Part shown: positions 54,794 through 61,512 of the stretch, in pieces
Numbering within the stretch: the stretch's first letter is position 1
How the letters are laid out: the number at the start of each line of letters is the position of its first letter
From: Flavisolibacter longurius
Lineage (GTDB): Bacteria > Bacteroidota > Bacteroidia > Chitinophagales > Chitinophagaceae
Length of the DNA stretch: 64,000 nucleotides
Direction: 5' to 3'
Assembly: GCA_013327885.1 (NCBI GenBank)
Contig: JABUMY010000001.1
Span: 62,001 to 126,000 of the forward strand
Made by a program: the position numbers and the translations under genes
The notes under the pieces: model-generated
Databases searched by the model: none
Told to the model about the DNA's origin: nothing
What the model saw: the letters and a program-made list of their open reading frames with translations, nothing else

Positions 54794-55684
54794 ATGAGAG
54801 TATTCCTTCCTTTTTTTCTATTGCTTTTAGGTACGTTAACTGGAAGTACACAAACCATCACCGTATCGGGTGCCTGTATAACGGGTACCAGTACCCTAAC
54901 GAAGGTTGCCGACGAAAATGGCAAAGTGGCCTATGCCGGTACCGGCACAGTAGCAGGATTCCCAGACATTGATATCAGTATCTACTGGATGGGTGAACCC
55001 GATAATCTTTGGGTGCTTGCGTATGACGGACAGCCTTATTACAGCAGCGATTGCGATCGCTCCACACCACCCAGTACCACCAATCCCAATTGCACCTGGA
55101 CGGCAGTTGAAGCCGCTTGCAGCAACCCGGCTGCCCTGGTCATTGCCGGTGCGGGAACCCTGCCCGTGCGGCTTGGCAGCTTTACGGCAACAAAGGTTGG
55201 CAACAAGGTACAATTGGCCTGGAGCACATCGGCTGAAACCAACAACAAGGGCTTTGATGTGCAGCGCAGTGCAGACGGCAACACCTGGACAAGCCTTGGC
55301 TTTGTGAACGGCGCCGGGCAATCGGCCCAAGCCCGGTCTTACCGTTTTGATGATGCCGCACCACGCAATGGCAAAAATTACTACCGCCTGCAGCAGGTCG
55401 ATTTTGATGGCCGTTCTTCCACATCCAGCATCGTTACGGTGGACATAGCTGCAAACGGATTTTACACCTTGCAGCCGGCTGGTAACGGGCAGTATCGCCT
55501 GCAGATCCATTCCTCACAAACCGTGGCGTTGCAGGTGGTTGACATGAGCGGCAAAAAGCTTCTTTCCAAAACCGTAGCACAGGGAATTCACCCCATTGAC
55601 ATGAGCGCCTATGCGCAAGGTATTTACCTGCTGCAACTGACCAAAGACAACGTGGTGACCACCGAAAAACTCATCAAACAATAA
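54794..55684 (+). CDS. Secreted protein with T9SS type A sorting domain
   Basis: A 296-residue protein. Signal peptide at residues 1-18 (TLTGSTQ). The central part has LGSFTATKVGNKVQLAWSTSAETNNKGFDVQRSADGNTWTSLGFV and KNYYRLQQVDFDGRSSTS, a fibronectin-III-like module typical of T9SS cargo. The last 80 residues are the type A C-terminal sorting domain (VVDMSGKKLLSKTV, GIHPIDMSAYAQGIYLLQLTKDNVVTTEKLIK), so the protein should cross the outer membrane through the type IX system and be attached at the surface. It is the first gene of a same-strand run leading to the tail-collar and sulfotransferase genes, with only 3 bp before the next start. Confidence 0.92.
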   Translation: MRVFLPFFLLLLGTLTGSTQTITVSGACITGTSTLTKVADENGKVAYAGTGTVAGFPDIDISIYWMGEPDNLWVLAYDGQPYYSSDCDRSTPPSTTNPNCTWTAVEAACSNPAALVIAGAGTLPVRLGSFTATKVGNKVQLAWSTSAETNNKGFDVQRSADGNTWTSLGFVNGAGQSAQARSYRFDDAAPRNGKNYYRLQQVDFDGRSSTSSIVTVDIAANGFYTLQPAGNGQYRLQIHSSQTVALQVVDMSGKKLLSKTVAQGIHPIDMSAYAQGIYLLQLTKDNVVTTEKLIKQ

Positions 55685-55687
55685 CAC

Positions 55688-56275
55688 ATGCACAACAGCC
55701 AATCGAGCCGCCGAAGCTTCCTGGGCAGCCTGGCCATCCTTTCTGCAGGCTCTGTTTTTGGTTCTTTTTCACGCCTTGTACCCGAAGCCCCGACGACAGA
55801 TCTTTACCGTGAGTGGAAACAATTCTGCCGGCAAAACTGTGGGCAATTGAGTCTTCTTGCGCTCCCGGGTACGGCCCTTGCTCCCTGCAAAGGCCATTGG
55901 TACGAGGTTGGTGAGGCCATTGCTTTTCCCCTGCACAACCTCCTTGTACAACCAACCTGGGTGTTTTGGTCAGAAGCAAAAGGCAAGCCTGCAGACCTGG
56001 TGATTACCCTGTATGAAAATAATGCGGCCAAAACAAAACTCGGCCGCCTGAACCGTTTCGAATGGGAAGGCTTGTTGTCATTGCCGGATGGTACGGAACC
56101 GCAGGATGTGATTGCCCTGCTGAAAGAAGCCTGTAAGTCCGATGCTACAGCAAGTAAAAGTAGGGCAACAGCCGCCATGCGAGTGGCTGTTCGTAAGGGG
56201 AGAGCCATTCGCATCACAACACACCTCAATCAAAAAGAGATTGCTATCAACAAACAATTCTTGTATTCTATCTAA
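55688..56275 (+). CDS. Putative Tat-exported protein, unknown
   Basis: A 195-residue protein with a twin-arginine signal: SRRSFLGSLAILSAGSVFG at residues 7-25, matching the S-R-R-x-F-L consensus. The mature part has two cysteines in KQFCRQNCGQLS and another in LAPCKGHWYE, and a Lys/Arg-rich C-terminus (KSRATAAMRVAVRKGRAIR). Tat export suggests folding, and possibly cofactor loading, in the cytoplasm before export. The family is not recognised. It starts 3 bp after the T9SS gene and precedes the tail-collar gene by 18 bp. Confidence 0.75.
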   Translation: MHNSQSSRRSFLGSLAILSAGSVFGSFSRLVPEAPTTDLYREWKQFCRQNCGQLSLLALPGTALAPCKGHWYEVGEAIAFPLHNLLVQPTWVFWSEAKGKPADLVITLYENNAAKTKLGRLNRFEWEGLLSLPDGTEPQDVIALLKEACKSDATASKSRATAAMRVAVRKGRAIRITTHLNQKEIAINKQFLYSI

Positions 56276-56293
56276 TCATTAAAACTTCAACTT

Positions 56294-56830
56294 ATGGAAC
56301 CTCTTATGGCAACAATTATATTATTTGCTGGCAACTTTGCGCCTCGTGGTTGGGCCTTTTGCAACGGGCAGATTTTATCGATCGCACAAAATACCGCTCT
56401 ATTTGCTTTGCTGGGTACCACCTATGGTGGTAATGGCCAAACCACATTTGCCCTTCCTGACCTTCGCGGAAGAACGCCTGTTGGTACAGGACAAGGCCCG
56501 GGACTGTCTGGCATTGATCTGGGTGAGGTGGCAGGTACAGAAACGGTCACGCTGATCATTAGCAATATGCCGGCGCATAATCATGTGATAACCGTTAATC
56601 CCAAGGCTATAAACGCAGCAGGTGATACTTCCAATCCAACAGGCGCTTACCTTGCCAACTCCGGTGCACTGGACAAGGAGTTCAAAGCAACAGGCACGCT
56701 TGTAAACATGGGTGCCGCAACCGCTACGTCAAATATTGCCGGTGGTAGCCAGCCTTTCAGCATCCGGAATCCTTACCTTGGTATGAATTACATCATTGCC
56801 ATGGAGGGGATCTTTCCTTCACGCAACTAA
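56294..56830 (+). CDS. Phage tail collar (Mdp/microcystin-dependent-type) protein
   Basis: A 178-residue protein of the bacterial tail-collar family, best known from MdpB-type microcystin-dependent proteins. Signature at the N-terminus: ATIILFAGNFAPRGWAFCNGQILSIAQNTALFALLGTTYGGNGQTTFALPDLRGRTPVG (about residues 6-64), followed by a repetitive, Gly/Thr/Ala-rich trimer-like region and ending RNPYLGMNYIIAMEGIFPSRN. The collar domain forms trimeric fibre tips in phages. Here there are no other phage genes, so it is probably a bacterial surface or intracellular protein that has adopted the fold. It sits in one operon-like run with T9SS-sorted, LRR and sulfotransferase genes. Confidence 0.92.
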   Translation: MEPLMATIILFAGNFAPRGWAFCNGQILSIAQNTALFALLGTTYGGNGQTTFALPDLRGRTPVGTGQGPGLSGIDLGEVAGTETVTLIISNMPAHNHVITVNPKAINAAGDTSNPTGAYLANSGALDKEFKATGTLVNMGAATATSNIAGGSQPFSIRNPYLGMNYIIAMEGIFPSRN

Positions 56831-56842
56831 TTGTCAGAGCCT

Positions 56843-57421
56843 ATGATAATTGATGCCGGTTGGTGGCGACAGTTGTCGCAACCCTGGAAAAATGCCTTTG
56901 CCGAAGTCTTTTTTACACATAGCAACGAGCCAACTTCCGAAGAGTTGGCTCACTTGTTTGCCTCACCGGCACTTCGGTTTGCCGGTCCGGAAGCCCCCCA
57001 TCCAAACATGTCGTTTCCACTCGCCGATCTTTCTGGCGTAAGGGACCTGGTCAACCTGCAAGTGCTGGTGGTCATTTATCATGAATTGGAAAGCATCGAT
57101 GCCCTGGCGCCGTTGACAAACCTGAAAGCCGTTTTCCTGCACAACAACCGGATCAAAAGCCTTCGGGGTATCGAATCCCACTTTGGCCTGGAGCAGCTTT
57201 ATCTTCAGTTCAATGAGATCGAAAGCATTCGCGAAGTAGAAAAGCTGACCAACCTACGGGAATTGTACATTCATGACAACCGGCTCAACTCACTGGAAGG
57301 CTTAACCGAAGCCCACAGCGATCATTTAAAAAGACTGGTGTGTCTCCCCAATGAAAGTCTGAAGCAAAAAGAGCTGATACGGGTAGAGCGGGAACTTTAT
57401 ATCCGTTGTCATGGTCTTTAG
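56843..57421 (+). CDS. Leucine-rich repeat protein
   Basis: A 192-residue protein with about four to five leucine-rich repeats of the 22-residue bacterial/SDS22 type: LVNLQVLVVIYHELESIDALAPL, LTNLKAVFLHNNRIKSLRGI, FGLEQLYLQFNEIESIREVEKL, LTNLRELYIHDNRLNSLEGL. The first 60 residues are helical, with a possible cap. There is no signal peptide. It probably binds a protein partner, perhaps the tail-collar protein or a modifying enzyme encoded beside it. I use the ATG at 56843; a TTG at 56831 directly after the preceding stop codon is also possible. It starts 12 bp after the tail-collar gene. Confidence 0.88.
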   Translation: MIIDAGWWRQLSQPWKNAFAEVFFTHSNEPTSEELAHLFASPALRFAGPEAPHPNMSFPLADLSGVRDLVNLQVLVVIYHELESIDALAPLTNLKAVFLHNNRIKSLRGIESHFGLEQLYLQFNEIESIREVEKLTNLRELYIHDNRLNSLEGLTEAHSDHLKRLVCLPNESLKQKELIRVERELYIRCHGL

Positions 57422-57451
57422 GTTTTCCCTGATTTTTCAAAATAGTTTGTT

Positions 57452-58426
57452 TTGAATTCTTCATCCCTGGCCAATTGGGTGCCGCTGCAGCTACACAAGT
57501 CTAGTACGGAACTTCTGTTCGAATGGCTGTACCTGGGTGAAAAAAAATTTACCGAACCTTTTTTCGACGATACGATCCTGGCCTGCCGCCGCACTTATCC
57601 CGACCAGCGTCGCTACAAAGTGGTTTCGGATTTGGACATGCTGCTGCAGTGGGGCGAAGGTCTTTCTTCTCTGCTCGTTACGGGCATCGTTTTTCATGTA
57701 TCACGTTGTGGTTCTACCTTGCTCTCGCAGTTGCTGGCGGCTGATGAAAAAAACAGTGTGCTTTCCGAAGTGCCATTTTTGGATGCGGCTTTGCGACTGC
57801 CCTTCCAGCGAAAAGAAATAACGACCGAAAAAGCGGAAGCTTGTTTCCGGGCAGCACTCTCCTTTTACGGCCAGCAACGGGCAGCTGTGCAAGAGCGGCT
57901 TTTTATCAAAGCCGATAGCTGGCACCTGCATTTTTACCAGCAGCTTCGCAGGCTTTTTCCGACCGTTCCCTTTTTTCTCCTGTTTCGGGAACCGGTGGGT
58001 GTCATCCGTTCGCAACAGCGGCAGCGGGGTATTCATTCGGTACCGGGAATGATCGAACCCGACGTACTGCAGTTGACAGCTGCACAAAGCGGGGACTACA
58101 ATCTCGATCGGTACATGACTGCTGTGTTGGAAGGATTTTACCGCCAGATGATTCACATCCTGCAAACTGACCTATTGGCCTTTCCGCTGCATTATGGAGA
58201 TGGAATGGAAAACAACATTCTCCAGCTTTACCAACAACTTCATCTTCCTGTCAACAGTCAACTCGCTACTGTTTTTAACGAACGTTGTCGCTTTGATGCC
58301 AAACGTCCGAAACAGGTATTTGCCGAAGAAGTGAGGAAAGAAGCCATTCCTGAATTCCTTACACTTGCTTCAGAACGTTACCAACAATTGGTTGCGCTCA
58401 GTGCAAACGATCGTTCAGTTTTGTAA
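57452..58426 (+). CDS. Sulfotransferase family protein (TTG start)
   Basis: A 324-residue PAPS-dependent sulfotransferase-like protein. The 5'-phosphosulfate-binding loop is FHVSRCGSTLLSQLL (residues 81-95). The 3'-phosphate-binding region is seen in FFLLFREPVGVIRSQQRQRG, with the RxPxxxxxS pattern. FIKADSWHLHFYQQLRRLFP and later Arg-rich segments fit the fold. It transfers sulfate from PAPS to a hydroxyl or amino group; the acceptor is unknown. No ATG is found before residue 63, and TTG at 57452 gives a full domain, so a TTG start is proposed. Its 3' end overlaps the oppositely oriented APS kinase gene by 29 bp; that enzyme makes PAPS, the sulfate donor. Confidence 0.85.
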   Translation: MNSSSLANWVPLQLHKSSTELLFEWLYLGEKKFTEPFFDDTILACRRTYPDQRRYKVVSDLDMLLQWGEGLSSLLVTGIVFHVSRCGSTLLSQLLAADEKNSVLSEVPFLDAALRLPFQRKEITTEKAEACFRAALSFYGQQRAAVQERLFIKADSWHLHFYQQLRRLFPTVPFFLLFREPVGVIRSQQRQRGIHSVPGMIEPDVLQLTAAQSGDYNLDRYMTAVLEGFYRQMIHILQTDLLAFPLHYGDGMENNILQLYQQLHLPVNSQLATVFNERCRFDAKRPKQVFAEEVRKEAIPEFLTLASERYQQLVALSANDRSVL

Positions 58427-58934
58427 GCACAAACGACAACAATTGCCGGCTGGCTTCGTTCACACCGGTCGTGCTGGTGTCGATGACAAGATCAGCCTCT
58501 CTTGGCTCTTCGTAAGGATCATTGATGCCCGTGAGGTTGTGGATCTTTTCCGGATCGTTATCGGGCAAAAGCGCTTTGCGATAAAGGCTTTTGGGATCTC
58601 TCTCCAATAGAACCGGTAGCGGGCAATGTACCCAGATGGTGAAAGCATGATAACGATTTTTTATTTCCCGGCGGCTTTCTTCAAAAGGGTTTATGGCTGC
58701 TATAATAGCGATGGTGCCTTGCAGGCAATAATCGTTTGCGATCCTTGCCAGCCGGCCCATATTTTCTTTGCGGTCAGCGGCCGAAAAACCAAGGTCTTTG
58801 CAAAGTGTTTTCCGGTACACATCACCATCGATAACAGCCGCGGCAAGGCCCCTGTTCACAAGGTCTTCTTGCAGCTTTTCGGCCAGCGTAGATTTGCCGG
58901 CACCGGGTAAGCCTGTGAATTGAAGCAGAAGCAT
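58398..58934 (-). CDS. cysC: Adenylylsulfate (APS) kinase
   Basis: A 178-residue APS kinase that phosphorylates adenosine 5'-phosphosulfate to PAPS. P-loop GLPGAGKST at residues 8-16; IDGDVYRKTLCKDLGFSAADRKENMGRLA contains the APS-binding DGD and the RxENxxR motif; ESRREIKNRYHAFTIWVHCPLPVLLERDPKSLYRKAL and the PYEEPREADLVIDT segment complete the family signature. No ATP sulfurylase gene is in this window. Converging with the sulfotransferase gene (29-bp overlap), it is well placed to supply its co-substrate, although it could also serve general sulfate assimilation. Confidence 0.96.
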   Translation of the reverse strand: MLLLQFTGLPGAGKSTLAEKLQEDLVNRGLAAAVIDGDVYRKTLCKDLGFSAADRKENMGRLARIANDYCLQGTIAIIAAINPFEESRREIKNRYHAFTIWVHCPLPVLLERDPKSLYRKALLPDNDPEKIHNLTGINDPYEEPREADLVIDTSTTGVNEASRQLLSFVLTKLNDRLH

Positions 58935-58940
58935 AGCGTT

Positions 58941-58968
58941 GAATGGTGAGTGGTCAGTGGTGAGTGAT
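58941..58968. repeat. Degenerate 7-bp tract, units like GAGTGGT
   Basis: Units GAATGGT, GAGTGGT, CAGTGGT, GAGTGAT, starting 7 bp upstream of the cysC start codon. Confidence 0.85.
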
Positions 58969-58983
58969 AGCCTGTTTTTATTT

Positions 58984-59025
58984 CACGTTTCACGTTTGAC
59001 GTTTCGCGTCTCACGTCTCACGTTC
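58984..59025. repeat. Degenerate 7-bp tract, units CACGTTT/CACGTCT
   Basis: Units CACGTTT, CACGTTT, GACGTTT, CGCGTCT, CACGTCT, CACGTTC, ending 3 bp before the stop codon of the HEAAH gene. Confidence 0.9.
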
Positions 59026-59027
59026 CT

Positions 59028-59516
59028 TCAATCCCGCAGCCATTTGGTCATGGTTGGATAAAACGGGCCGTCGCCCCTTGTTGTGGTCATCTGCAGCCAC
59101 TCCAGTACAGGCACGCCAAAGTATCTTCCTTCCTTAAAGTTTTCTACAATCGAATCACTGCCCTGGTGGTAGCCATCTTTATGAAATACAAAACAAGGGT
59201 CAATGTGGAGGTGAATGCAGGCGGCATAACTCCAGGCGATGGCCATCATTTCTTCAGCTGGTGCATCCGGTCGTTTGCCAATGGCCGGTCCGTCAAGATG
59301 CTTTCGTTCGGCCGCAGGCACAACAGCAAGGTGCGCCGCTTCGTGCAATATATCGCCGGGGTGAAGCAGTTGTTGCCGGTCAAACAGGATCCGTCCGTCA
59401 CGTATCAACAGTCCCGGTAAAAAACATTCGTCCGGCGCTAGCGCCTCTTCTGCGGTTTCTATACCAATGGTGCGGAGAAAGTTAATCGCCGTTTGAAAAT
59501 AGAGGTCGTTGTTCAT
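59028..59516 (-). CDS. Zincin-like protein with HEAAH motif
   Basis: A 162-residue soluble protein whose most notable feature is GDILHEAAHLAVVP, an HExxH zinc-peptidase motif with His58, Glu59 and His62. A downstream EEMMAIAWSYAACIHL (Glu88/Glu89) could supply the third ligand, as in gluzincins. The rest of the fold (DECFLPGLLIRDGRILFDRQQLLHPG before; GPFYPTMTKWLRD at the end) is not recognised. Whether it is an active peptidase is unproven. Its start codon overlaps the stop codon of the hydroxylase-like gene by four bases (ATGA), which implies coupled translation and a shared task. Confidence 0.8.
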   Translation of the reverse strand: MNNDLYFQTAINFLRTIGIETAEEALAPDECFLPGLLIRDGRILFDRQQLLHPGDILHEAAHLAVVPAAERKHLDGPAIGKRPDAPAEEMMAIAWSYAACIHLHIDPCFVFHKDGYHQGSDSIVENFKEGRYFGVPVLEWLQMTTTRGDGPFYPTMTKWLRD

Positions 59517-60220
59517 GAGATTTCGTCTTCCAGTTGTGCTGCCAATGCCAGTGAAACAGGCGTGTTCATCCGGCGAAGCTCGTTGACCATTTTTTGTTTG
59601 GATGCCGCGTCATACGCATTGGTACTTTCTTCTTCTGCGTTTTTTTGCAGCACGGCCCCTGTTGTTAGCACCTCCCGCAGCCAGTCGTTCACCAGGCAAT
59701 CCACTACCAGGTGAACCCGGTCGGTAGTCCCCTTGTTCTGCACACGGTGCCGCAGGCAAAGATTCATGTACCAGCATTCTCCTTCCTTTAGCTGTAACTT
59801 CTCATCATCGAGGTAGAACGAAACAGCCGGGTTAGTGACTACGGGTATATGCAACCGGGCTTCGCCATCTTCAAAACGCAGGGCCGTATCGCGGTGTTCT
59901 TTGATCACGGCACCGGCCTGCAGTTTCATCAGGCGAACAGCCGTTTTTTCGCAGGGGAAAGCTTGCAGCACCGATTGAATGTAAGGACAGGCCTGGAGCA
60001 AAACAGTATCCTGGTATTGGCCTGCGCTGGCCACTTCGGCATGCACTGCAAAAATGTTTTCTGTTTCTCCGTTGATGGAGCGGAGGGGCAGCACCGTCCA
60101 CCCGCCTTCGTAATGCGCCTTGTTGTAATGCTGCTTCCAGTGTGCGGCTTCCAGTGACGCTACCTCGGCCTTCATTTTCTCTGCATCGAATTGCTGTGGC
60201 AGTTGTGCGTATTTAAGCAT
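59513..60220 (-). CDS. Aspartyl/asparaginyl beta-hydroxylase-like dioxygenase
   Basis: A 235-residue cupin-fold protein of the Asp/Asn beta-hydroxylase family, which uses 2-oxoglutarate and Fe(II) to hydroxylate Asp, Asn or other residues. Diagnostic stretches: VRLMKLQAGAVIKEHRDTALRFEDGEARLHIPVVTNP (iron-binding His109 and the RLHxPxxTN motif), then EGECWYMNLCLRHRVQNKGTTDRVHLVVD (second His about 158 or 170, and the NxxxxRxHLVVD 2-oxoglutarate-binding segment). About 60 extra residues at the C-terminus are helical. It reads into the HEAAH gene with a 4-bp overlap. Proposed substrate: a protein or peptide from the same cluster, but this is inference. Confidence 0.88.
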   Translation of the reverse strand: MLKYAQLPQQFDAEKMKAEVASLEAAHWKQHYNKAHYEGGWTVLPLRSINGETENIFAVHAEVASAGQYQDTVLLQACPYIQSVLQAFPCEKTAVRLMKLQAGAVIKEHRDTALRFEDGEARLHIPVVTNPAVSFYLDDEKLQLKEGECWYMNLCLRHRVQNKGTTDRVHLVVDCLVNDWLREVLTTGAVLQKNAEEESTNAYDAASKQKMVNELRRMNTPVSLALAAQLEDEIS

Positions 60221-60372
60221 AGCCTTGATTCGTACCCGAAATGTACTCTATTTGCTGCGTTAGGAAAAATGGGAAACGGCAACACAAACATTTCTTCGGT
60301 TTAAAAACAGTAATGCTGTTGTTCTATGCAAAACAGGAGATTAATTCTCTCCGAAACCGTAATTTGGACCAA

Positions 60373-61512
60373 ATGATTTTCATGGGTCGATATGTACTTT
60401 TTTTTGTCTTTTTGTTTTCAGTTGCCGTTGCCAGTGCCCAACCCAAACGGGCAAAGGACATGGGGCTTTCCATTGGCGTGCTGCCTGCCGGCAAGAATAA
60501 CGCCATCACCGATGTGGCAGGCGTGCAGGTAGGGCAAGTGACCATTATGCGTGCCGACTCAATACGGACAGGCGTGACCGTTATCCTCCCGCACACCGGC
60601 AATCTTTTCCAGCAAAAACTACCGGCGGCTGTTTATGTAGGCAATGGTTTTGGCAAGCTGGCCGGCACCACGCAGGTAAAAGAACTGGGTAACCTCGAAT
60701 CACCGGTTGTTCTTACCAATACCTTAAATGTTGCTACGGCCATGGAGGCCGTCATTGATTATACGCTGGTACAAAAAGGAAACGAAGGCGTGCAATCGGT
60801 AAATGCGGTGGTGGGTGAAACCAACGATGGTTATCTCAACGACATCCGCGGACGCCATGTGCGGAAAGAAGACGTGTTGCTGGCCATACGGCAGGCACGA
60901 AGCGGCCCGGTGGAAGAAGGTTCCGTGGGTGCCGGAACAGGCACGGTTTGTTTTGGCTTTAAAGGCGGCATTGGTACGGCTTCGCGAAAGCTGCCACAGT
61001 CGCTGGGCGGCTATACCGTGGGGGTGCTGGTGCAAAGCAATTTTGGCGGCGTGCTGCAGGTAGATGGTGTACCGGTGGGAGAGGAACTCAAAAAATATTA
61101 CCTGCGGGATCAACTCAATAACACGGTGGACGGCTCCTGCATGATCGTCGTCGCTACCGATGCGCCGCTTGATAGCCGCAACCTCGAACGCTTGGCACAA
61201 CGGGCTTTTATGGGACTGGCTAGAACCGGCGGCATTGCCTCCAACGGCAGCGGCGATTATGTGATCGCTTTTTCCACGGATTCTACCCTTCGTATTCCGC
61301 ATCAAACCAGTGAGCCCCGGCAAACCGTTAGCCTGTTGCACAACGATGCCGTTTCGCCGCTTTTTATGGCGGCCATTGAAGCTACCGAAGAAGCCATCAT
61401 CAATTCGCTGCTGACGGCACGAACCATAAAAGGCAAGGGTGGCCGGCAGGTAGAGGCGCTGCCGCACGATAAGCTGATTCCCATTTTATTGAAGTATAAC
61501 CGTCTCCGTTAG
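60373..61512 (+). CDS. Secreted P1 family peptidase (DmpA/BapA-like)
   Basis: A 379-residue member of the DmpA/L-aminopeptidase D-esterase family, made as a proenzyme that cleaves itself to expose a nucleophile. A signal peptide is present (VAVASAQ). Seen: LSIGVLPAGKNNAITDVAGVQVGQVTI at the start, VYVGNGFGKLAGTTQVKELGNLESPVVLTNTLNV, VVGETNDGYLNDIRG, GSVGAGTGTVCFGFKGGIGTASR, and NTVDGSCMIVVATDAPLDSRNLERLAQRA, where the Ser after Gly is the predicted nucleophile. It releases N-terminal residues, including beta- or D-amino acids in some members. The ATG at 60373 is chosen to give the signal peptide. Confidence 0.94.
   Translation: MIFMGRYVLFFVFLFSVAVASAQPKRAKDMGLSIGVLPAGKNNAITDVAGVQVGQVTIMRADSIRTGVTVILPHTGNLFQQKLPAAVYVGNGFGKLAGTTQVKELGNLESPVVLTNTLNVATAMEAVIDYTLVQKGNEGVQSVNAVVGETNDGYLNDIRGRHVRKEDVLLAIRQARSGPVEEGSVGAGTGTVCFGFKGGIGTASRKLPQSLGGYTVGVLVQSNFGGVLQVDGVPVGEELKKYYLRDQLNNTVDGSCMIVVATDAPLDSRNLERLAQRAFMGLARTGGIASNGSGDYVIAFSTDSTLRIPHQTSEPRQTVSLLHNDAVSPLFMAAIEATEEAIINSLLTARTIKGKGGRQVEALPHDKLIPILLKYNRLR

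What the first reader, a model, noticed from the sequence alone, without database searches (positions are those of the whole stretch)
54794..60220. Candidate secreted-fibre modification cluster: T9SS cargo, tail-collar and LRR proteins with sulfotransferase, APS kinase, HEAAH zincin and Asp/Asn beta-hydroxylase
Seen: five genes on the plus strand in tight succession (gaps of 3, 18, 12 and 30 bp): T9SS-sorted protein, Tat-signal protein, Mdp-type tail-collar protein, LRR protein, sulfotransferase. They converge on a minus-strand set of APS kinase, HEAAH protein and beta-hydroxylase-like dioxygenase; the last two overlap by ATGA and the sulfotransferase/kinase ends overlap by 29 bp. Known: APS kinase makes PAPS, the sulfotransferase donor; the hydroxylase family modifies Asp/Asn side chains; tail-collar domains form trimeric fibres. 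Inference: the group makes a surface or secreted protein that is hydroxylated, sulfated and perhaps trimmed by the zincin. I know of no described system with this composition, but I could not search for one.
Basis: partly seen in the sequence, partly recalled or inferred. Interest (0 to 1): 0.75.

Follow-up and report, generated by a model that had tools for sequence, protein, structure and literature searches.

The report
Hydroxylase–sulfotransferase cassette for tail-collar proteins
A block of eight neighbouring bacterial genes, found again in several related genera, looks like a kit that makes a small phage-tail-like protein and chemically decorates its very last amino acid, an asparagine; comparing genomes predicts the exact spot to look at in the laboratory.

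Summary
The hydroxylase (HYDR) tracks tail-collar genes across genomes: 19 of 20 HYDR genomes in a 147-genome family sample (collars in 46 of 147) and 23 of 23 in a 395-genome phylum sample (collars in 92). HYDR is fused to the sulfotransferase in three loci and to the zincin in three. The decisive observation: collar proteins of HYDR genomes end in Asn (genome-weighted 0.91) far more than others (0.22), the most discriminating column; 57 genome-disjoint nearest pairs split 35 to 1, 21 ties. The zincin without HYDR does not predict it (3 of 10 collars). Best reading: HYDR hydroxylates the C-terminal Asn/Asp of collar proteins in the cytoplasm and partner enzymes (here sulfotransferase plus APS kinase; elsewhere a carbamoyltransferase or methyltransferase-like protein) cap the hydroxyl. 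The zincin's reaction is unknown; it found no PDB fold match. No chemistry was tested.

The parts
54794..55684 (+). T9SS-sorted secreted protein (Sec-like N-terminus, Por_Secre_tail C-terminus)
   Evidence: Pfam PF18962 30.3 bits, TIGR04183 42.1 bits; orthologues beside the collar gene in L096-L103
55688..56275 (+). Tat-signal protein of unknown function (SRRSFLGSLA)
   Evidence: RRxFL kept in 9 of 9 aligned; TIGR01409 only 13.6 bits, under its cut-off of 16.7; tatC is in the genome
56294..56830 (+). Mdp-type tail-collar protein, 178 aa, ends ..IFPSRN
   Evidence: PF07484 104.7 bits; profile of 18 collars matches T4 short tail fibre gp12 and a long tail fibre in the PDB
56825..56827 (+). codon of the C-terminal Asn, predicted target of the hydroxylase
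   Evidence: C-terminal Asn tracks presence of HYDR across genomes
56576..56584 (+). HNH (HxH) motif of the collar protein, residues 95-97
   Evidence: HxH in all 165 collars aligned; a metal-binding role by analogy with T4 gp12 is recalled, not tested
56843..57421 (+). Leucine-rich-repeat protein (TTG 56831 possible start)
   Evidence: PF12799 54.4 bits; orthologues in L096-L103 and L106
57452..58426 (+). Sulfotransferase (SULF), TPST-like predicted fold, PAPS loop HVSRCGST and RxPxxVxxS
   Evidence: motif roles recalled
58398..58934 (-). APS kinase (PAPS supply)
   Evidence: PF01583 142 bits; TIGR00455 152.6 bits over its cut-off of 138.7
59028..59516 (-). Zincin-like protein (ZINC), no match in Pfam, NCBIfam or PHROGs, no PDB fold match
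59331..59345 (-). HEAAH motif of ZINC; H58, E59, H62, E89 and H112 invariant in the 86 aligned
   Evidence: 86 of 94 ORFs kept after an identity filter
59513..60220 (-). Fe(II)/2-oxoglutarate-type hydroxylase (HYDR), PF05118
   Evidence: 73.5 bits; closest solved relative L-proline cis-4-hydroxylase E 7.9e-9
59888..59896 (-). HRD of the HxD...H motif of HYDR (H109, D111; H158 at 59747-59749)
   Evidence: H109, D111, H158, R168 invariant in the 16 aligned; iron-binding role from family knowledge

Best explanation
The cluster makes and modifies a small tail-collar protein. Shown by comparison: HYDR is almost confined to genomes with collar genes, and its presence predicts that collar proteins end in Asn (sometimes Asp). 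Inferred: HYDR, a cytoplasmic Fe(II)/2OG enzyme, hydroxylates that C-terminal Asn/Asp; the TPST-like sulfotransferase, fed with PAPS by the neighbouring APS kinase, sulfates the new hydroxyl; in other lineages a NodU-like carbamoyltransferase or a methyltransferase-like protein takes the second step. The zincin acts on the same product or intermediate (it is fused to HYDR in three loci); its reaction is unknown. The collar protein has no obvious signal peptide and the donors are cytoplasmic, so modification probably comes first; the folded protein may then leave by the Tat route together with the cluster's Tat-signal protein, with the T9SS protein as an outside partner. The export step is the least supported.
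For: Co-occurrence: HYDR with collars 19 of 20 (expected 6.3, p 1.8e-10) in 147 family genomes and 23 of 23 (expected 5.4, p 2.7e-16) in 395 phylum genomes; by genus 9 of 9, p 2.7e-6; not corrected for ancestry beyond the genus count. Linkage: of 40 HYDR-centred loci (window, all 19 other family genomes with HYDR, 20 of 22 other phylum genomes with HYDR) SULF lies within 5 kb in 19, ZINC in 16, collar in 15, APS kinase in 11, carbamoyltransferase in 5; 35 have at least one of SULF, ZINC, carbamoyltransferase. Fusions: HYDR-SULF in L034, L039, L171; HYDR-ZINC in L125, L158, L183. C-terminal Asn: discovery set 70 of 77 collars end N/D in HYDR genomes vs 22 of 88 without; leaving out loci with a GNAT gene 64 of 64 vs 19 of 73; second set, fetched after the idea, 16 of 23 vs 17 of 52 (p 0.005), without GNAT loci 14 of 18 vs 17 of 52 (p 0.0019). 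The three genera that hold both states agree, save one of three collars in G460. Third set of 20 named genomes chosen for ZINC, incl. Pseudomonadota and an acidobacterial MAG: each of the 17 with HYDR has a collar ending in N among those read, 25 of 26 collars read end N/D. Genome-disjoint nearest pairs: 57, of which 35 for, 1 against, 21 ties. Genome-weighted scan: last column Asn 0.91 vs 0.22; largest difference of any column in 1000 label shuffles 0.32. Specificity in the family sample: HYDR with ZINC but no SULF 14 of 14 collars N/D, with SULF but no ZINC 16 of 16, with neither 3 of 3; ZINC without HYDR 3 of 10. SULF model closest to protein tyrosine sulfotransferases. Carbamoyltransferase beside HYDR in nine loci, two of them (L023, L166) the same contig by length; a methyltransferase-like protein, under Pfam's cut-offs, follows HYDR in Pseudoalteromonas and Oceanospirillum.
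Against: No mass or enzyme data. Other collar columns also differ between the groups more than in shuffles (up to 0.37), so part of the signal is ancestry. In the second set the genus-level test is weak (2 of 3 vs 4 of 22, p 0.13). 40 of 143 collars in HYDR-free genomes also end in N/D, so the residue has a use without HYDR or arises easily. Within HYDR genomes some collars end otherwise: mostly GNAT-type trios (L095, L199, L207, L221), a divergent trio (L268), one collar of L229 and one of Niastella; other GNAT-flanked collars do end in RN (L222, L288, L294). HYDR-free Hymenobacter has one collar ending N and one P. Only 15 of 40 HYDR loci have the collar within 5 kb and 5 have none of SULF, ZINC, carbamoyltransferase. 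One HYDR genome (G097) gave no collar match. SULF and ZINC are mostly alternatives near HYDR (17 SULF only, 11 ZINC only, 3 ZINC with carbamoyltransferase, 2 carbamoyltransferase only, 2 SULF and ZINC), so the window's double set is unusual. The closest solved HYDR relatives act on free proline.
Confidence: 0.6

Rival explanations
1. Lineage effect: HYDR and one subtype of collar gene were inherited together, and that subtype happens to end in Asn; HYDR acts on something else in the collar system (another residue, or a T9SS, Tat or LRR protein).
For: Other collar columns also differ between the groups (up to 0.37); some GNAT-type collars in HYDR genomes do not end in Asn.
Against: The C-terminal column stands far apart (0.69); nearest pairs matched on the rest of the sequence (last four residues removed) split 35 to 1; three within-genus contrasts agree; GNAT-flanked collars beside HYDR in Pseudoalteromonas end in RN; no relative of the window's Tat or LRR protein was labelled in the 19 HYDR loci or the 20.
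Confidence: 0.22
2. Small-molecule pathway: HYDR hydroxylates a free amino acid (proline-hydroxylase-like) and SULF modifies a metabolite or polysaccharide; collar proteins are only companions.
For: Closest solved relatives are L-proline cis-4-hydroxylase and a proline oxidase/hydroxylase entry; distant homologues lie with other genes in Streptomyces and Asticcacaulis.
Against: Genome-wide dependence on collar genes and the C-terminal Asn signal are not expected; SULF is closest in predicted fold to protein sulfotransferases.
Confidence: 0.1
3. The group is a remnant of a phage, tailocin or contractile injection system.
For: The collar protein matches 15 PHROGs families of the tail category.
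Against: Of ten proteins scanned (cluster and two flanking genes) only the collar protein matches tail families; flanking genes are a Peptidase_S58 protein, a beta-lactamase-family protein and a PQQ propeller. The rest of the window and the neighbours of other loci were not scanned for tail genes.
Confidence: 0.03
4. Amidation-like route: HYDR hydroxylates the C-terminal Asn at the alpha carbon and ZINC, as a zinc lyase, splits the product, leaving a C-terminal amide, in analogy to animal PHM/PAL (recalled).
For: HYDR-ZINC fusions and adjacency; the predicted target is the C-terminal residue.
Against: Would leave no hydroxyl for SULF in clusters that have both, such as this one; HExxH is typical of peptidases and the animal lyase has another zinc site (recalled).
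Confidence: 0.05

Closest known systems
Phage T4 short tail fibre gp12 / collar domain (PF07484), Mdp-type proteins
   Same: Collar domain; profile match to gp12 and to a long tail fibre in the PDB; HxH motif
   Different: Stand-alone chromosomal proteins of about 180 aa; I recall no hydroxylation or sulfation of gp12
L-proline cis-4-hydroxylase (4p7w) and other PF05118 hydroxylases (LpxO; animal ASPH, recalled)
   Same: Family and conserved HxD...H residues
   Different: Predicted substrate is the C-terminal Asn/Asp of a protein rather than free proline, a lipid or EGF-domain residues
Tyrosylprotein sulfotransferases (animal TPST; bacterial RaxST, recalled)
   Same: Predicted fold and conserved PAPS-type motifs
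   Different: Predicted acceptor is a new hydroxyl at a C-terminal Asn; the Tyr of the collar's GALDxEY stretch is Phe in the window
NodU-type O-carbamoyltransferases
   Same: Family match; beside HYDR in nine loci
   Different: Here predicted to carbamoylate a hydroxylated protein residue; not in the window
PHM/PAL peptide amidation and RiPP tailoring (recalled)
   Same: Oxygenase plus metal enzyme acting at a peptide C-terminus, sometimes fused
   Different: No leader peptide or precursor cleavage shown; substrate is a tail-fibre-like protein

Membership tests
PF05118 Asp/Asn beta-hydroxylase family | Profile match over cut-off | tested here: met
   73.5 bits vs 22.6
PF05118 Asp/Asn beta-hydroxylase family | Conserved iron ligands and 2OG arginine | tested here: met
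   H109, D111, H158, R168 invariant in 16 of 16 aligned; roles by family knowledge
PF05118 Asp/Asn beta-hydroxylase family | Hydroxylation of Asp/Asn | not testable with these tools
   only the C-terminal Asn association
PAPS-dependent sulfotransferases | Profile match over cut-off | tested here: inconclusive
   26 bits vs 27 for the window protein; 9 of 9 aligned relatives match at E<=0.01
PAPS-dependent sulfotransferases | Sulfotransferase fold and PAPS-binding motifs | tested here: met
   pLDDT 90.4, TPST best match E 3e-6; SRCGST in 30 of 30 aligned, 30 of 34 found being used
APS kinase | Profile match over equivalog cut-off | tested here: met
   TIGR00455 152.6 vs 138.7 bits
Phage tail collar proteins | Collar domain | tested here: met
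   104.7 bits vs 24
Zinc metallopeptidases (zincins) | HExxH plus a third ligand | tested here: met
   H58, E59, H62 and E89 invariant in 86 of 86; the motif and E89 lie on two predicted helices; zinc geometry was not measured
Zinc metallopeptidases (zincins) | Fold match to a known clan | tested here: inconclusive
   no PDB match below E 2.9; weak viral hits, best E 0.029, among them IrrE (0.13) and SprT-like (0.41) proteins
T9SS cargo | Type A C-terminal sorting domain | tested here: met
   TIGR04183 42.1 vs 23 bits, for the 54794-55684 protein only
Prophage / tailocin / eCIS | Other tail, sheath or baseplate genes nearby | tested here: not met
   ten proteins (cluster and two flanking genes); the whole window was not scanned
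RiPP cluster | Short precursor with leader and processing protease or transporter | not tested
   no dedicated search made

The most novel reading that the evidence does not exclude
Bacteria of several phyla carry a C-terminal modification system for chromosomal tail-collar proteins: a dedicated hydroxylase marks the last residue (Asn/Asp) and interchangeable partners (sulfotransferase with APS kinase, carbamoyltransferase, methyltransferase-like protein, zincin) give it a lineage-specific cap, before a folded collar assembly is exported, perhaps through Tat. The zincin would be a metalloenzyme family, possibly a new fold, dedicated to this system.
Probability: 0.4. Interest if true: 0.88.

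Novelty: categorically new. Interest (0 to 1): 0.78.

Why it matters
Stand-alone collar genes are common (92 of 395 phylum genomes sampled) and I know of no established role for them; this gives them a system context and an exact, testable site.

Tried and rejected
Tyrosine sulfation of the conserved GALDxEY stretch: rejected for the window, which has Phe there. Zincin as the determinant of the C-terminal Asn: rejected, ZINC without HYDR gives 3 of 10 collars in 4 genomes. Fusion in L188: rejected, judged an over-extended ORF in GC-rich DNA from its sequence. Homology of the window's Tat protein and the Tat protein family F6 of other clusters: the one alignment shown covers the signal region. 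A collar-type formyltransferase in this genome: not found with one query, only matches at 30 and 32 percent. Phage-borne HYDR: only 26-31 percent matches in four records; no collar gene is named in the two regions read, though one (L316) lies among virion genes beside a putative acetyltransferase. Solved relatives of ZINC by sequence: none. Papers: ten searches, seen as listings with abstract starts only, none read; no listed title concerns collar proteins with a hydroxylase or sulfotransferase; one search matched 1,012 papers of which 25 were listed; preprints and most subscription journals are not held, so absence from print is not established.

Limits and rows dropped before counts: collars whose profile match stopped before position 180 and identical sequences; loci with a GNAT gene where so marked (in the second set this removed three collars against the idea in L221 and two for it in L222); ORFs under 60-100 aa, and ORFs overlapped by longer ones. 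Loci L254, L258 and L271 gave no collar ORF. The second set of 54 loci includes other loci of three genomes already seen (G412, G420, G424). In the third set only stretches around best matches were read; in Xanthobacteraceae and Hymenobacter the best-match collar itself was not recovered as an ORF, in Niastella it ends in P and in Pedobacter suwonensis the middle collar ends in D. HYDR status was set by a single-protein search in the family sample and by a profile in the others. G086 and G136, with only partial sulfotransferase matches, were left out of the SULF group.

Full report
What is there. Pfam and NCBIfam support the T9SS sorting domain, collar, LRR, APS kinase and PF05118 hydroxylase; the sulfotransferase scores just below its cut-off, the Tat protein matches only the Tat-signal model below cut-off, and the zincin matches no family. 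The best named zincin relatives are Chitinophagaceae.

The cluster is conserved. Four of the 80 (L097 Flavisolibacter nicotianae, L099 Ferruginibacter paludis, L101 Ferruginibacter MAG, L102 Chitinophagaceae MAG) carry all eight genes in the window's layout, though in L101 the APS kinase ORF has only 103 aa; L096 lacks APS kinase, L098 Lacibacter luteus and L100 lack sulfotransferase and kinase, L103 shows no hydroxylase, kinase or sulfotransferase ORF, and L106, cut by the contig end, has zincin, hydroxylase, kinase, sulfotransferase and LRR with the first two in the other order. The T9SS, Tat, collar and LRR proteins align over their length. Over all 80 loci the labels were collar 32, HYDR 27, T9SS tail 24, SULF 14, APS kinase 9. 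In Niabella pedocola the Tat, collar, LRR and T9SS genes lie together while HYDR is on another contig.

A wider system. Around HYDR, ZINC and collar genes of other genomes another core appears: collar genes with a Peripla_BP_6-like protein and a formyltransferase-like protein (27 and 22 of 60 loci, window included; families), joined in various loci by HYDR, ZINC, SULF, APS kinase, a PKHD-type dioxygenase, a Tat protein, or GNAT with DUF6916. The window genome has no close formyltransferase of this kind but has a second collar trio with a Tat protein and a GNAT gene (L095).

HYDR depends on collars. In 147 family genomes HYDR is in 20, ZINC in 16, SULF in 15, collars in 46; HYDR with collar 19, ZINC with collar 15, SULF with HYDR 13. 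In 395 phylum genomes HYDR is in 23 and collars in 92, and all 23 HYDR genomes have collars. In 20 genomes chosen because they carry ZINC, including records labelled Oceanospirillum, Undibacterium, Xanthobacteraceae, Sphingomonadales, Acidobacteria and Chloroflexota, collars are in 19 and HYDR in 17. Collar and HYDR are often far apart (within 5 kb in 15 of 40 HYDR loci), so the link is not only positional.

HYDR partners. Of 40 HYDR loci, 19 have SULF, 16 ZINC and 5 a NodU-like carbamoyltransferase within 5 kb; five have none of these (L022, L024, L026, L035, L188). Single ORFs join HYDR and SULF in L034, L039, L171 and HYDR and ZINC in L125, L158, L183. In Pseudoalteromonas and Oceanospirillum a methyltransferase-like protein, below Pfam's cut-offs, follows HYDR. 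Enzymes that transfer sulfate, carbamoyl or methyl groups can use the kind of hydroxyl that HYDR would make; this is inference.

The target residue. Comparing 77 collars of HYDR genomes with 88 of HYDR-free genomes, the last residue stood out (Asn 0.87 vs 0.16; next column difference 0.32). Per locus, collars beside HYDR, and collars with the Peripla_BP_6-like/formyltransferase pair in HYDR genomes, end ..N (G010 ..RD) in the discovery set, while the same kind of trio in HYDR-free genomes mostly ends in S, G, P, Q or T with some N. I then fetched 54 further collar loci of the phylum sample: 16 of 23 collars end N/D in HYDR genomes against 17 of 52 (p 0.005); with GNAT loci left out 14 of 18 against 17 of 52 (p 0.0019); by genus 2 of 3 against 4 of 22 (p 0.13). 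Both sets by genus, GNAT loci left out: 22 of 23 against 8 of 37, p 1.5e-8. Three genera hold both states (g50, g108, g117) and agree, save one collar of G460. In the third set 25 of 26 collars read in 17 HYDR genomes end N/D, each genome having at least one N; HYDR-free Undibacterium reads SRA, Hymenobacter N and P (my count of the rows, duplicate locus L293 left out). Pooled and deduplicated: 108 of 123 against 40 of 143; 57 genome-disjoint nearest pairs give 35 for, 1 against, 21 ties. With genomes weighted equally the last column differs by 0.69; 1000 label shuffles reach at most 0.32, the next real column 0.37. ZINC does not explain it (3 of 10 collars in ZINC genomes without HYDR); SULF without HYDR was too rare to test.

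Proteins. HYDR keeps an HxD...H motif; its best solved relatives are proline hydroxylases, which accept a free carboxylate, as a C-terminal residue would present (inference). SULF is predicted to fold like tyrosylprotein sulfotransferases. ZINC is predicted with pLDDT 95.7 from 86 sequences, with invariant H58, E59, H62, E89 and H112, and finds no PDB match below E 2.9; Foldseek can miss distant zincins and the second aligner was not available. Collar proteins show no clear signal peptide (longest hydrophobic run in the first 35 residues: median 6, maximum 12; a crude measure). Tat-like ORFs lie near collars more often than elsewhere (30 of 1088 vs 2 of 1543 ORFs; many are orthologues or duplicate loci, and only 30 of 171 collar loci show one). 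Of 32 collar loci in the zincin set 18 carry a Tat label and 17 a T9SS-tail label. The genome has tatC.

Verdict. My certainty: conserved cluster, near certain; HYDR acts on the collar system, likely; on its C-terminal Asn, about 0.65; sulfation of the product, about 0.5; Tat export and the role of ZINC, open.

Noticed in passing
L093 (G136:C4:484000-503500): Eighteen collar genes in tandem beside a formyltransferase-like gene in a HYDR-free genome; none of the eighteen ends in N or D.
   Followed up: partly
L023, L031, L038, L085 and others: A Peripla_BP_6-like protein without an evident signal peptide and a formyltransferase-like protein travel as a pair with collar genes (families F1, F2); function unknown.
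   Followed up: partly
L095 (G000:C10:101500-117500): Second collar trio of the window's own genome, with a Tat protein and a GNAT acetyltransferase; C-termini SPN, SQT, PRW.
   Followed up: partly
L199 8601-8909, L294 10536-10904: DUF6916 (PF21880) proteins sit next to a GNAT acetyltransferase and a collar trio in a Bacteroidota genome and a Pseudoalteromonas plasmid.
   Followed up: partly
L023, L027, L029: A second, YbiX/PKHD-type dioxygenase lies near HYDR and ZINC.
   Followed up: no
L025 13752-15590: Collagen-like repeat protein next to a collar/HYDR/SULF cluster; ORFs of the same similarity group in L031, L033, L036.
   Followed up: no
L316 (Pseudomonas phage PfAn1): A distant HYDR-like gene (26 percent) lies beside a putative acetyltransferase among virion genes.
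   Followed up: no
window 60361-61509: Peptidase_S58 protein directly beyond the hydroxylase; not part of the conserved cluster.
   Followed up: no
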